This document shows positions 9,955 to 19,126 of a stretch of DNA of 64,000 nt, in pieces (the first letter of the stretch is position 1; the number at the start of each line of letters is the position of its first letter). Source of the DNA: Allorhizobium ampelinum S4 (GTDB taxonomy: Bacteria > Pseudomonadota > Alphaproteobacteria > Rhizobiales > Rhizobiaceae); NCBI RefSeq assembly GCF_000016285.1, contig NC_011988.1, forward strand, positions 186,001 through 250,000, written 5' to 3'. The position numbers and the translations under genes were made by a program. Under the pieces are notes generated by a model. It searched no databases and was not told the origin of the DNA. It saw nothing but the letters and a program-made list of their open reading frames with translations.

Positions 9955-10950
9955 ATGAGCTATGCCCTTAGCCTGCTTGACAAAAGCCCGGTCGAACCGG
10001 GTGCTGTTGCCGCCGATGCCTTGAAAGCCACGGTCGCTCTTGCCTTGCGCGCCGAAGACCTTGGCTATCGGCGCTTCTGGCTTGCGGAACATCACAACCT
10101 GCCGGCGCTTGCCAGTTCGGCGCCAGAGGCGCTGATTGCCTATCTCCTTGCCAGGACGTCGCGGCTCAGAATCGGTTCCGGCGGCATCATGCTTCAGCAT
10201 TACAGCGCCTATAAGGTTGCAGAAACCTTCAACCTGCTGGCAGCGCTGGCGCCGGGCCGGGTTGATCTGGGTGTCGGCAAGGCACCGGGTGGATTTCCCT
10301 ACGCCACCCATGCCCTGCAAGCCGGTCGGAAAGCGGCTGCCCCTGCCGATTTCGAGGAACAGCTTGAGGATTTGAACCGCTATCTGCTGACGGATGCCGC
10401 TGCTGCCAATGCCTTGCTGGCAACGCCGGTGCCGCCCGTTCCGGCAGAGCGTTTCCTGCTTGGTGCCAGTGTCGCGAGCGCAAAGCTGGCGGCGGCAAAA
10501 GGCTGGACGCTGGTTTTCGCGGGCCATTTGAATGGTGACCAGCATAATCTGCAGGAGACCTTTGATGTTTACCGTCGTGAAACCGGTGGCAAAGTTCCCG
10601 TTCTGGCTCTGGCCGCTTTGGCGACCGACGCGGAAGAGACGGCGAGAAGCCTCGTGGCTGACATCAAGATCTTCAAGGTGATTCTGGCCAATGGTCAAAG
10701 CGTCAATGTCGGTAATGCCGAACAGGCCGCCGAGTTTGCTCGTCAGTCCGGTGTGTCGGATTACCGGGTTGAAGAAAAGACCCCGCATGTTCTGGCAGGC
10801 ACGGGCGAGCAAGTCCGCAAGGAGCTCGATGCCCTTCATGCCACGCTTGGAGTGAGCGAATTCATCATCGACATCCCCGTTCCGCAGTCGGCTCTTCGGC
10901 TGAATGCCATTGAGTTGATTGCTGGTTCGCGCCTGTCTCTTGCCGCCTGA
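9955..10950 (+). CDS. LLM class flavin-dependent oxidoreductase (MsnO8 type)
   Basis: A 331-residue bacterial-luciferase-like TIM-barrel protein. The MsnO8-type signature is visible in RFWLAEHHNLPALASSAPE, the RIGSGGIMLQHYSAYKVAETF block and GRVDLGVGKAPGG. Such enzymes use reduced FMN and oxygen. It opens an apparent operon with a second LLM enzyme, an M20 deacylase, an acetyltransferase and an amino-acid-type ABC importer. In that context it resembles YtmO/CmoO of the Bacillus S-alkyl-cysteine pathway. The reaction on a sulfur-containing N-acetyl amino acid is inferred from context, not proven by sequence. The ribosome site is poor (GGAG about 15 bases upstream). Confidence 0.85.
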   Translation: MSYALSLLDKSPVEPGAVAADALKATVALALRAEDLGYRRFWLAEHHNLPALASSAPEALIAYLLARTSRLRIGSGGIMLQHYSAYKVAETFNLLAALAPGRVDLGVGKAPGGFPYATHALQAGRKAAAPADFEEQLEDLNRYLLTDAAAANALLATPVPPVPAERFLLGASVASAKLAAAKGWTLVFAGHLNGDQHNLQETFDVYRRETGGKVPVLALAALATDAEETARSLVADIKIFKVILANGQSVNVGNAEQAAEFARQSGVSDYRVEEKTPHVLAGTGEQVRKELDALHATLGVSEFIIDIPVPQSALRLNAIELIAGSRLSLAA

Positions 10951-10970
10951 TTTTAGAGAAAGATGTTCCC

Positions 10971-12317
10971 ATGAGCAAGAAATCCATCAATTTTGGCGTG
11001 ATGTTGCACGGTCCGGGCGGTCACATGAATGCTTGGAAACATCCAAGCGTTCCCGCTGACGCCAGCGTCAACTTTTCCTTTTATGTGGAGACGGCCCGCA
11101 AGGCGGAAGCCGCAGGCCTCGCCTTCGCCTTTGTCGCCGACGGACTGTATATCAACGAGCATTCCATTCCGCATTTTCTCAACCGGTTCGAACCGATTGC
11201 CATTCTCTCGGCGCTGGCCGCCTCCACCTCGAAAATCGGGCTGGTCGGGACGATTTCCACGTCCTATTCGGACCCATTCACCGTCGCCCGGCAATTTGCC
11301 TCTATCGATCATATCAGCGGCGGACGGGCCGGATGGAATGCGGTGACAACGCCGCTGGAAGGCTCTGGCCGCAATTACAGCCGCGAACATCCCGAGCATT
11401 CGCTGCGCTACCAGATTGCCGAGGAATATCTGGATGTGGTCAAGGGATTGTGGGACAGCTGGGACGATGACGCCTTCGTGCGCGACCGCGATACGGGTGC
11501 GTTCTTTGACCGGGAAAAGCTGCATCGGCTGGATCATAAGGGCCGCTTCTTCCGCGTCGAGGGTCCGCTCAATATTGGTCGCTCCCGGCAGGGTCAACCG
11601 GTGGTGTTTCAGGCTGGGTCTTCGGATTCAGGCATTCATCTGGCAGGCAAACATGCCGATGCCGTCTTTACCAATGGCGCGAGTTTCGAAGAAGGGCAGG
11701 CCTTTGCCAAGCAAGTCAAGCAGAGCGCCATTGCCCAAGGCCGTAGCGCCAGCGATGTGCTGATTTTCCCCGGCATCGGGCCGATTGTCGGCGCAACGCA
11801 GGAAGAAGCGGATGAAAAATATCGGGCAATCAGCGCCTTGGTAACGATTGAAGAAGCATTGCTGTTTTTGGGCCGGTTCTTCGATCATCATGATTTCCGC
11901 CGGTATCCGCTGGATGAGCCTTTCCCGGAGCTTGGTGATCTCGGCAAGAACAGTTTCCGCTCCACCACCGACAAGATCAAGAAAAACGCCAGAGAAAAGG
12001 GCCAGACCTTGCGCGAAGTGGCGCTGGAGGCCGCAACGCCGCGCAGCACCTTTGTCGGCACACCCGACCGGATTGCTGACGAGATCATCCGCTGGGTCGA
12101 TGGCGGTGCTGCCGATGGTTTCATTCTGGGCTTTCCGGTCATCACGGAAGGACTGGATGACTTTGTCGCCCATGTGCTGCCACGTCTTGAAGCGCGGGGC
12201 TATTTTGATCGCACTCTACAGGGTGACACGTTGCGCGATCATCTCGGCCTGCCTTTCCGTGAAAGCCGCTATGCGGCGACATCAGCTGACAAGGCCACAA
12301 CAAGGGCAGCCAGCTAG
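10971..12317 (+). CDS. NtaA/DszA-family FMN-dependent monooxygenase
   Basis: A 448-residue LLM monooxygenase of the nitrilotriacetate / DszA / SnaA branch. The N-terminal FGVMLHGPGGHMNAWKHP, the SDPFTVARQFASIDHISGGRAGWN flavin/active-site region and the QAGSSDSG phosphate-binding loop are characteristic. Members need a separate flavin reductase; none is encoded in this operon. The gene lies 20 bases after the first LLM gene. It matches YtnJ/CmoJ in the Bacillus ytm/ytn operon, whose product oxidises N-acetyl-S-alkyl-cysteines. Its TAG stop is the first three bases of the palindromic element at 12315-12417, so element insertion may have set or changed the C-terminus. Confidence 0.88.
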   Translation: MSKKSINFGVMLHGPGGHMNAWKHPSVPADASVNFSFYVETARKAEAAGLAFAFVADGLYINEHSIPHFLNRFEPIAILSALAASTSKIGLVGTISTSYSDPFTVARQFASIDHISGGRAGWNAVTTPLEGSGRNYSREHPEHSLRYQIAEEYLDVVKGLWDSWDDDAFVRDRDTGAFFDREKLHRLDHKGRFFRVEGPLNIGRSRQGQPVVFQAGSSDSGIHLAGKHADAVFTNGASFEEGQAFAKQVKQSAIAQGRSASDVLIFPGIGPIVGATQEEADEKYRAISALVTIEEALLFLGRFFDHHDFRRYPLDEPFPELGDLGKNSFRSTTDKIKKNAREKGQTLREVALEAATPRSTFVGTPDRIADEIIRWVDGGAADGFILGFPVITEGLDDFVAHVLPRLEARGYFDRTLQGDTLRDHLGLPFRESRYAATSADKATTRAAS

Positions 12318-18003: not shown

Positions 18004-18046
18004 AGCGCCTGCGGCGCTCATTTCTCTCGCGTAAAAGGACCGCTCC

Positions 18047-19126
18047 ATGGCCATTGCGATCAATCATATCGGTTTCCTGATCCCGGGTAATTATCCGGAA
18101 AGGGACCCATTGTCCGGTCTGGAAACCACGCTGAACCTGTTTGAATTCGGCGAGCATCTCGGCTTCGACTCGGCCTGGGTGCGCCATCGCCATCTGGAGC
18201 CGGGTATTTCCTCTGCTGCGGTTTTCCTGGCTGCCGCCAGTCAGCGGACCCGCCGGATCGAGATTGGTACGGCGGTCATTCCGCTGGGCTATGAAAGTCC
18301 TTTTCGGCTGGCGGAAGATCTGGCGCTTGCTGATGTGCTCTCCGCTGGCCGGTTGAATATCGGCGTCAGCGCTGGCCTGCCCGCCCATCTTGAACTGATC
18401 GGCAAAAAGGTGTTCGATGGCGATTGGACGACCTATGATTTTTCCCATAACCGTGTTTTGCGATTGATCGACAATCTGCGTAGCGACTATCTTGGCGGCG
18501 AAGATACAAGGCTGAAAACGCCGTTCGGTCCGCAGCGCCCCCGGCTGCAACCGCATGCGAAAGGGTTGATCGACCGGATCTGGTATGGCGGCGGTTCCAT
18601 CGCTTCGGCCAGATGGGCAGGCAGCAACGGTCTCAACCTGCTGATCGGCAATGTCACGTCCGGTGAGGACACCGACAATTTCTATGAGGCGCAGGCCCGG
18701 CAACTCAGTCTTTACCGTGCAGCAGGCGGGAGTGCTAGCCGGGTGGCGCTAGGCCGGGTGATCGTGCCGCTCGACAGTGCCGATGCACCGACCCGGCGCA
18801 AATATCTCGATTTTGCCGCTGGGCGCCTGGAGCGAACGCTGCACCCGAATGGGGAGCGCCGTACGCTTTTCCCGCGTGATCTGGTTGGCAGTTCCGACGA
18901 TATTCTCGAATGGCTCCATGCCGACCCGATCCTGAGCGAGGTGACGGAGCTGCGTCTTGAACTGCCTTATGAGTTCGAGCAGGACGAATACCGGCAGATT
19001 CTACAGGATTTTGTCACCAAAATTGCGCCGGGACTGGGATGGCAGGCCCGTAATGTAGATGGCACGCAAGCGCTTGGGTCTGCGCTGGATCACAGCCATA
19101 CGCGGAGCGCACGCCAGACCCATTGA
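18047..19126 (+). CDS. LLM class flavin-dependent oxidoreductase (third of the locus)
   Basis: A 359-residue luciferase-like TIM-barrel protein: N-terminal INHIGFLIPGNYPERDP, then GFDSAWVRHRHLEPG, the RIEIGTAVIPLGYESPFRLAEDLALADVLSAGRL core and the RIWYGGGS phosphate-binding segment. It belongs to neither the MsnO8 nor the NtaA branch of the two upstream enzymes. It ends the rightward operon and faces the leftward histidine kinase gene 73 bases on. It probably oxidises a further variant of the sulfur substrate or supplies an alternative specificity. The reaction is unknown and no flavin reductase is encoded in the operon. Confidence 0.85.
   Translation: MAIAINHIGFLIPGNYPERDPLSGLETTLNLFEFGEHLGFDSAWVRHRHLEPGISSAAVFLAAASQRTRRIEIGTAVIPLGYESPFRLAEDLALADVLSAGRLNIGVSAGLPAHLELIGKKVFDGDWTTYDFSHNRVLRLIDNLRSDYLGGEDTRLKTPFGPQRPRLQPHAKGLIDRIWYGGGSIASARWAGSNGLNLLIGNVTSGEDTDNFYEAQARQLSLYRAAGGSASRVALGRVIVPLDSADAPTRRKYLDFAAGRLERTLHPNGERRTLFPRDLVGSSDDILEWLHADPILSEVTELRLELPYEFEQDEYRQILQDFVTKIAPGLGWQARNVDGTQALGSALDHSHTRSARQTH

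What the first reader, a model, noticed from the sequence alone, without database searches (positions are those of the whole stretch)
9955..19126. Alphaproteobacterial counterpart of the Bacillus ytm/ytn S-alkyl-cysteine salvage operon
One rightward block holds an MsnO8-type LLM oxygenase, an NtaA-type LLM oxygenase, an M20 deacylase, a GNAT acetyltransferase, a polar-amino-acid permease-ATPase, two binding proteins and a third LLM oxygenase. The Bacillus ytm/ytn operon has the same classes (YtmI, YtmJ/K, YtmL-N, YtmO, YtnJ, YtnL), where an S-substituted cysteine is N-acetylated, oxidised and deacetylated to recover cysteine. The gene classes are seen directly; the pathway transfer is inference. 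The extra third LLM enzyme and the fused permease-ATPase are differences.
Basis: partly seen in the sequence, partly recalled or inferred. Interest (0 to 1): 0.75.

Follow-up and report, generated by a model that had tools for sequence, protein, structure and literature searches.

The report
Three-oxygenase damaged-cysteine salvage operon
A grapevine Agrobacterium and many other soil bacteria carry a gene set that probably strips unwanted groups off the sulfur of cysteine so that it can be reused; it is a relative of a known Bacillus pathway with one extra, unstudied oxygen-using enzyme.

Summary
The block is real: eight rightward genes (MsnO8-type LLM, NtaA-type LLM, M20, GNAT, ABC permease-ATPase, two binding proteins, third LLM) in an Agrobacterium vitis-like genome (98.5% to strain CG78 here). 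The NtaA-type enzyme is in the YtnJ/CmoJ clade; YtnJ is nearer to it than to the paralogues compared. Firmicute partners of the MsnO8-type enzyme are nearer to it than to one own paralogue. M20 and GNAT are right in class, not demonstrable orthologues. So S-substituted-cysteine salvage like ytm/ytn is likely, not shown. Not in the finding: (1) the third LLM marks one branch: 69 of 80 loci found with it hold the MsnO8-type, YtnJ-type, GNAT and permease-ATPase genes; (2) the permease-ATPase frame here has an in-frame TAG, while CG78 and plasmid pRvVAR031a have it intact; (3) an operator-like dyad, TCTAYNNATTTTRTAGA, precedes many of these operons, a flavin reductase in 7 of 11 loci that have one (all Rhizobium), and some other organosulfur-type genes of this genome, which supports a sulfur role apart from homology. 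The third LLM has Arg where luciferase-type relatives have His (36 of 36); its reaction is unknown. A new variant of a known kind.

The parts
9909..9925 (.). operator-like dyad (TCTACCTATTTAATGGA, 2 mismatches to TCTAYNNATTTTRTAGA), about 30 bases before the first gene
   Evidence: similar sites upstream of the operon in Rhizobiaceae; the only match at up to 2 mismatches in the 64-kb window, 0.10 expected
9955..10950 (+). MsnO8-family LLM flavin monooxygenase (CmoO/YtmO-like), predicted sulfoxidase
   Evidence: TIGR03558 321 bits; 44-45% to Firmicute cluster partners
10971..12317 (+). NtaA-type LLM flavin monooxygenase, CmoJ/YtnJ clade, predicted C-S cleaving step
   Evidence: 57.7% to YtnJ over 423 aa; YtnJ set in tree; PDB search
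12315..12417 (.). about 100-bp repeat element with 12-nt perfect inverted ends between the NtaA-type and M20 genes; not part of the pathway
   Evidence: inverted repeat; 35 matches, many partial, in the genome, itself included
12440..13651 (+). M20 amidohydrolase, predicted N-acetylcysteine deacetylase
   Evidence: TIGR01891 355 bits; YxeP (1ysj) best solved structure by sequence, 271 bits
13655..14209 (+). GNAT acetyltransferase, predicted N-acetylation of the S-substituted cysteine
   Evidence: PF00583; model pLDDT 84.6 with GNAT structures as best matches
14255..16018 (+). polar-amino-acid ABC permease-ATPase frame, interrupted by an in-frame TAG at 14708-14710 (open pieces 14255-14710 and 14711-16018)
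   Evidence: intact in CG78 and pRvVAR031a
16072..17010 (+). family 3 amino-acid substrate-binding protein
   Evidence: PF00497; solved-structure search
17068..18003 (+). second family 3 substrate-binding protein
   Evidence: PF00497
18047..19126 (+). third LLM flavin monooxygenase (LLM3), function unknown; marker of this operon branch
   Evidence: PF00296; TIGR04027 94 bits, below its cut-off of 413; 69 of 80 loci; model pLDDT 88.2

Best explanation
The operon imports S-substituted cysteines (or related amino acids) and salvages the cysteine. Predicted order: ABC import; N-acetylation by the GNAT; sulfoxidation by the MsnO8-type LLM (CmoO-like); C-S cleavage of the sulfoxide by the YtnJ-type LLM (CmoJ-like), giving an aldehyde and N-acetylcysteine sulfenic acid; reduction; deacetylation by the M20 enzyme. 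LLM3 is most likely a second FMNH2-dependent oxygenase that widens the range of substrates or adds an oxidation step. The block is probably switched on with other organosulfur genes through a shared dyad operator. Shown by sequence: gene content, conservation, the CmoJ clade, the operator-like motif and the strain's transporter interruption. Inferred: substrates, reaction order, regulator and LLM3's reaction.
For: YtnJ clade. CmoO/CmoJ chemistry and pathway in B. subtilis (PMC10863075, parts 1 and 2 of 3); YtnL is an N-acetylcysteine deacetylase and the ytn cluster is implicated in S-methyl- and S-benzylcysteine breakdown (PMC12757645, part 1 of 6 and passages). Gene set in 69 of 80 LLM3 loci; in a phylum sample the YtnJ type (E up to 1e-120) is in 26 of 398 genomes and LLM3 (E up to 1e-70) in 6 of 398, each with a YtnJ-type gene 3-6 kb away. 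Sulfur role apart from homology: in R. johnstonii 3841 the motif at up to 1 mismatch is at 3 places in 7.8 Mb (control 0): the operon, 51 bases before an FMN reductase that passes the MsuE cut-off (256 against 212.5), and one unassigned place; a taurine-type ABC transporter is nearby. In the window's genome 5 of 20 other distinct sites lie within 300 bp of an LLM gene, 0.13 expected; neighbours of own sites include an SsuD-like enzyme and a MetQ-family protein.
Against: GNAT and M20 are not demonstrably orthologous to the Firmicute ones. No glutaredoxin or flavin reductase match in the window, and no MsuE-type reductase in the genome. The M20 gene is missing from 21 of the 69 loci. The transporter frame is interrupted in this strain. 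At up to 2 mismatches the motif count in the whole genome is not above the control by much (23 against 20), 9 of the 22 site loci lie inside ORFs, and one of the five LLM-near sites (C1:180655) lies behind the LLM gene, not before it. The seven flavin-reductase sites are all in Rhizobium species, so not seven independent cases. No activity was tested.
Confidence: 0.74

Rival explanations
1. LLM3 is not an accessory of substrate range but handles by-products: it oxidises the aldehyde released by the CmoJ-like step, like bacterial luciferase.
For: LLM3 is nearest to luciferase-family enzymes among solved structures (8k74, 2i7g, 8cbb, luciferase), and the CmoJ reaction releases an aldehyde (PMC10863075).
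Against: The position aligned with the first His of the E/Q-H-H motif of 8cbb and 8k74 is Arg in 36 of 36 LLM3 sequences; that this His is the luciferase catalytic base is recalled. LLM3 also occurs without the other genes in actinobacteria and two Pantoea.
Confidence: 0.15
2. The operon salvages S-(2-succino)cysteine (scm/yxe type) rather than S-alkylcysteine.
For: Same classes: GNAT, LLM, M20, amino-acid ABC (PMC9706529 and PMC12757645, part 1 of each); the M20 is nearest to YxeP among solved structures.
Against: The LLM is in the YtnJ clade, and an MsnO8-type sulfoxidase is not among the yxe locus components listed in PMC9706529. ScmK itself was not compared.
Confidence: 0.1
3. A carbon or nitrogen scavenging system for aminopolycarboxylates or N-acetylated amino acids.
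For: The NtaA family name; the best PDB match (661 bits) is labelled nitrilotriacetate monooxygenase (3sdo), as the depositors named it.
Against: The YtnJ match exceeds EDTA monooxygenase by more than 300 bits; the motif and neighbourhoods point to organosulfur genes.
Confidence: 0.05
4. In this strain the operon is a decaying relic, because its transporter gene is broken.
For: In-frame TAG at 14708-14710, absent from the single 588-aa frame of 98.5%-identical CG78.
Against: The other seven genes are open and LLM3 is 100% identical to CG78; a base error or import by another transporter is possible. A GTG directly follows the TAG.
Confidence: 0.25

Closest known systems
Bacillus subtilis ytm/ytn (tcyJKLMN-cmoO-cmoJ) S-alkylcysteine salvage operon
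   Same: CmoJ-clade LLM, MsnO8-family LLM, M20, GNAT, polar-amino-acid ABC transporter with binding proteins (Bacillus gene list partly from PMC9239247 and PMC12757645 passages, partly recalled).
   Different: Third LLM added; permease fused to ATPase in relatives; no glutaredoxin match in the window; GNAT and M20 not demonstrable orthologues; an operator-like motif of its own.
scm/yxe S-(2-succino)cysteine operon and its 2SL variant
   Same: Acetylation, breakdown, deacetylation logic with GNAT, LLM and M20 (PMC9706529, PMC12757645).
   Different: YtnJ-clade oxygenase plus MsnO8-type enzyme; no lyase among the eight genes.
Pantoea agglomerans plasmid cluster (NZ_CP143522.1)
   Same: MsnO8 LLM, M20 amidohydrolase, YtnJ-type LLM, two binding proteins, GNAT, permease, ATPase.
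   Different: Permease and ATPase are separate genes; no LLM3 in the cluster.
TIGR04027 (KPN_01858) LLM family
   Same: Nearest curated family of LLM3 (94 bits).
   Different: Far below the curated cut-off of 412.9.

Membership tests
ytm/ytn (cmo) S-alkylcysteine salvage operon | C-S cleaving monooxygenase of the CmoJ/YtnJ clade | tested here: met
   556 bits to YtnJ; YtnJ set apart from the seven own paralogues put in, 95/88; reverse check 513 against 347 bits among own loci compared
ytm/ytn (cmo) S-alkylcysteine salvage operon | MsnO8-family sulfoxidase orthologous to CmoO/YtmO | tested here: inconclusive
   Family met; Niallia and Paenibacillus partners score 236-249 bits to it, 152-157 to the C6 paralogue, but 254-258 to the own C1 copy; tree unresolved; CmoO itself not available
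ytm/ytn (cmo) S-alkylcysteine salvage operon | orthologous N-acetyltransferase | tested here: inconclusive
   GNAT domain and fold present; 28% over 102 aa to the Niallia cluster GNAT, which is nearer to the Ewingella one (39%); 47% to the Pantoea one; YtmI not available
ytm/ytn (cmo) S-alkylcysteine salvage operon | M20 N-acetylcysteine deacetylase | tested here: inconclusive
   M20 class met; best own match of the Pantoea cluster enzyme but not of the Paenibacillus one; activity not tested
ytm/ytn (cmo) S-alkylcysteine salvage operon | polar-amino-acid ABC transporter with binding proteins | tested here: met
   class level only, and the frame is interrupted in this strain
ytm/ytn (cmo) S-alkylcysteine salvage operon | glutaredoxin-like protein in the operon | tested here: not met
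   Niallia glutaredoxin has no match in the window at E 1e-8 and the gaps between the eight genes are 122 bases at most; a DsbA-like relative follows the operon in 18 of 80 loci
ytm/ytn (cmo) S-alkylcysteine salvage operon | growth on, or turnover of, S-alkylcysteine | not testable with these tools
   needs the bench
scm/yxe S-(2-succino)cysteine operon | ScmK or 2SL breakdown enzyme | not tested
   the oxygenase is in the YtnJ clade, but neither ScmK nor 2SL was compared directly
NTA/EDTA monooxygenases | LLM enzyme groups with aminopolycarboxylate oxygenases | tested here: not met
   EDTA monooxygenase 214 bits against YtnJ 556; 3sdo (661 bits) carries an NTA label by its depositors only
TIGR04027 (KPN_01858) LLM family, for LLM3 | score above the curated cut-off of 412.9 bits | tested here: not met
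   94.1 bits
bacterial luciferase (alkanal monooxygenase), for LLM3 | catalytic His in the E/Q-H-H motif | tested here: not met
   Arg at the aligned position in 36 of 36; the catalytic role of that His is recalled

The most novel reading that the evidence does not exclude
LLM3 carries out an undescribed flavin-dependent oxidation of N-acetylated S-substituted cysteines, a third oxygenase chemistry beside CmoO and CmoJ, and the whole set, with its own FMN reductase in some species, forms a dedicated organosulfur regulon of Rhizobiaceae controlled through the TCTA-N9-TAGA dyad.
Probability: 0.4. Interest if true: 0.65.

Novelty: new variant of a known kind. Interest (0 to 1): 0.48.

Why it matters
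It ties the B. subtilis cysteine-dealkylation chemistry to a defined gene set in named rhizobia, burkholderias and others, names an unstudied enzyme (LLM3) that travels with it, and gives a testable operator that may mark more organosulfur genes. The natural substrates of the ytn-type cluster are still open (PMC12757645 says so), and plant-associated bacteria with the extra enzyme may help to find them. That the pathway reaches beyond Bacillus is not itself new: PMC10863075 calls it widely distributed in soil bacteria.

Tried and rejected
LacI regulator 8240-9328 as the operon's regulator: among the 80 loci it was seen only in CG78, but most loci reach barely that far upstream, so this is a weak test. 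LLM3-like matches at about 30% in two genomes of the phylum sample (G563, G566): not counted as LLM3; the one scanned is nearest to TIGR04027 at 99 bits, and other genes lie between them and the YtnJ-type gene. Context of stand-alone LLM3 as a clue to function: gene calling in high-GC loci was poor, and a family scan of ten neighbours from three loci showed no common theme. Sigma-70 and terminator scan: about as many sites as in shuffles. Fold search of the GNAT model: only generic acetyltransferases among the 50 listed. Literature: ten searches of openly licensed PMC papers (some lists capped, two empty) listed no paper whose title or abstract start describes this operon outside Firmicutes, LLM3 or the motif. 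The original CmoO/CmoJ paper and the 2014 Bacillus paper were seen only as references. Papers seen: PMC10863075 parts 1 and 2 of 3; PMC12757645 and PMC9706529 part 1 of 6 and passages; PMC9239247, PMC11354265 and PMC8234197 passages. Rows dropped: three of 39 LLM3 rows whose matches ran past a stop.
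Full report
What is there. Eight genes run rightward from 9955 to 19126: MsnO8-family LLM, NtaA-family LLM, M20 amidohydrolase, GNAT, an ABC permease-ATPase frame, two family 3 binding proteins and a third LLM (LLM3). Family scans confirm each class. The window lies on contig C5 of a 6.32-Mb genome; the best-matching named record is Agrobacterium vitis CG78 chromosome 2, 98.5% over 11,954 bases.

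A broken gene. The permease-ATPase is split by an in-frame TAG at 14708-14710. CG78 has a single 588-aa frame, plasmid pRvVAR031a of A. vitis VAR03-1 has it annotated as one gene, and 68 of 69 loci elsewhere have permease and ATPase in one frame. It is either a recent strain-specific nonsense change or a base error.

Orthology with the Bacillus pathway. Among solved structures the NtaA-type enzyme scores 661 bits to a protein (3sdo) that its depositors named nitrilotriacetate monooxygenase, 556 to YtnJ, 304 to 7e36, 247 to DszA and 214 to EDTA monooxygenase. YtnJ scores 513 bits to the window enzyme and 347 to the best other own locus compared (L001-L008, L053-L055). A tree of 25 proteins puts window, other proteobacterial, Niallia, Paenibacillus and YtnJ sequences in one set of 18 (95/88), apart from seven own paralogues; the own genome has 17 other matches in all, many partial, and the tree carries a long-branch warning. 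MsnO8-type partners in the Niallia and Paenibacillus clusters score 236-249 bits to the window enzyme and 152-157 to the own C6 paralogue, but 254-258 to a second own copy on C1, and that tree is unresolved. Of the own M20 genes compared, the window's is the best match of the Pantoea cluster enzyme but not of the Paenibacillus one; the GNAT is 47% to Pantoea and 28% over 102 aa to Niallia. The claim is therefore firm for the CmoJ-like enzyme, moderate for the CmoO-like one and class-level for the rest.

Distribution. In a family sample (198 genomes besides the own one) 7 hold LLM3 at 55% identity or more; 6 of these 7 have the whole operon around it. They include Rhizobium, Ensifer, Phyllobacterium, Devosia, Bosea, Methylobacterium, Variovorax, Acidovorax, Paraburkholderia and Stenotrophomonas. 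In a phylum sample of 398 genomes the YtnJ type (E up to 1e-120) is in 26 and LLM3 (E up to 1e-70) in 6; these 6 have both, 3-6 kb apart. I read the surroundings of 16 of the 26: 13 have MsnO8-type, YtnJ-type, GNAT, permease and ATPase genes together, 4 of them with LLM3 beside them; one genome of the window's family (G194) has the set without LLM3. One Pantoea agglomerans plasmid cluster lacks LLM3 and has permease and ATPase apart. Firmicute clusters on Niallia and Paenibacillus plasmids carry a third LLM of another family (TIGR04036-like, 280 and 292 bits, below its cut-off of 479), and the Niallia one an SsuE-type FMN reductase and a glutaredoxin. A third LLM thus seems to have been recruited more than once. 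PMC10863075 already calls the salvage pathway widely distributed in soil bacteria, so its presence outside Bacillus is not new in itself.

A second set in the same genome. On contig C1 around 175-180 kb lie an MsnO8-type gene (55%), divergent to a GNAT (60%) and an LLM3 relative (55%), followed by two more NtaA-type genes, one of them scanned and below its family cut-off. Neighbouring genes look like dipeptide-type ABC genes by eye; they were not scanned. That MsnO8-type, GNAT and LLM3 genes stay together with what looks like another transporter argues that LLM3 works in the same pathway.

A shared operator. Upstream regions of 27 loci were printed and a dyad, TCTAYNNATTTTRTAGA, was drawn from them by eye; eight fit the stricter search form. 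In the window it lies at 9909-9925 with two mismatches, the only match in 64 kb (0.10 expected). Over the 80 loci (1.63 Mb) there are 42 sites at up to one mismatch and none for the backwards control; 28 of 69 loci have one within 250 bp of the MsnO8-type gene, 7 of 11 loci with the FMN reductase have one 51-52 bases before it, and 7 of the 42 sites are unexplained. The count at the operon is partly circular. The reductase sites are not, but the seven loci are all Rhizobium species. In R. johnstonii 3841 the whole genome has three sites and no control match: the operon, the FMN reductase (MsuE family, 256 bits against a cut-off of 212.5) and one place I could not assign; taurine-type ABC genes lie nearby. 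In the window's genome 5 sites at up to one mismatch stand against 1 for the control; at two mismatches 23 against 20, so the count alone says nothing, and 9 of the 22 site loci lie inside ORFs. But 5 of 20 distinct sites other than the window's lie within 300 bp of an LLM gene, 0.13 expected, binomial P 1.4e-7, without correction for base composition; one of the five lies behind its LLM gene. Neighbours of own sites include an NtaA-family LLM, an SsuD-like LLM (197 bits, below its cut-off), a TIGR04028-like binding protein (313 bits, below its cut-off), the divergent MsnO8/GNAT-LLM3 pair of C1 and a MetQ-family protein. This is evidence for an organosulfur role that does not rest on the homology to Bacillus. 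The regulator is unknown.

How it most likely works. From PMC10863075 (parts 1 and 2 of 3 read) CmoO makes the sulfoxide of N-acetyl-S-alkylcysteine and CmoJ cleaves it to an aldehyde and a sulfenic acid. PMC12757645 (part 1 of 6 and passages) reports three redundant N-acetylcysteine deacetylases in B. subtilis, which fits an M20 that is missing from 21 of 69 loci and four own paralogues at 46-53%. I propose the same order of steps here; none is shown by experiment. A flavin reductase must come from elsewhere in this genome: none matched in the window and no MsuE-type one in the genome.

LLM3. The model is confident (pLDDT 88.2, pTM 0.85) and nearest to luciferase-family oxygenases; the best, 8k74 (TM 0.70), is a Klebsiella poly(acrylic acid) monooxygenase (PMC11354265, passages). 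The position aligned with the first His of the H-H pair of 8k74 and 8cbb is Arg in 36 of 36, two residues from another invariant Arg, which suggests an anionic substrate; that is inference. I favour a second oxygenase for other substituents; aldehyde oxidation is less likely.

Verdict.

Noticed in passing
window 12315-12417: About 100-bp element with 12-nt perfect inverted ends between two operon genes; the pRvVAR031a copy has only a 21-base gap there. 35 matches, many partial, in the whole genome. Looks like a rhizobial intergenic repeat.
   Followed up: partly
G000:C5:166-186 kb (L055), just before the window: Another cluster with an NtaA-family LLM, an SsuD-like LLM, an LLM3-like enzyme (31-32%), ABC genes and a TIGR04028-like binding protein, with two operator-like sites (one exact).
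   Followed up: partly
G000:C1:160-195 kb (L053, L054): Island with many LLM genes, ABC genes, an SsuA-family sulfonate binding protein, an M20 relative and several operator-like sites.
   Followed up: partly
L091:11076-17469: In R. johnstonii 3841 the operon is followed by a DsbA-like protein, an MsuE-family FMN reductase with its own operator-like site, a ChaC-like protein (glutathione breakdown, role recalled) and taurine-type ABC genes.
   Followed up: partly
L200:8072-18751: Niallia taxi megaplasmid: SsuE-type reductase, MsnO8-type LLM, glutaredoxin, YtnJ-type LLM, ABC genes (dipeptide-type by eye), a third LLM (TIGR04036-like) and a GNAT in a row.
   Followed up: partly
L107, L110, L111, L127, L141, L142, L143: LLM3 relatives (54-64%) without the rest of the operon within the fetched 10 kb, in actinobacteria and two Pantoea.
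   Followed up: partly
window 27837-29264: Another NtaA-family LLM gene (34% to the operon's one) in the same window.
   Followed up: no
L202:75-8186: Ewingella americana plasmid cluster with MsnO8-type and YtnJ-type LLM, GNAT and a different kind of ABC transporter.
   Followed up: no
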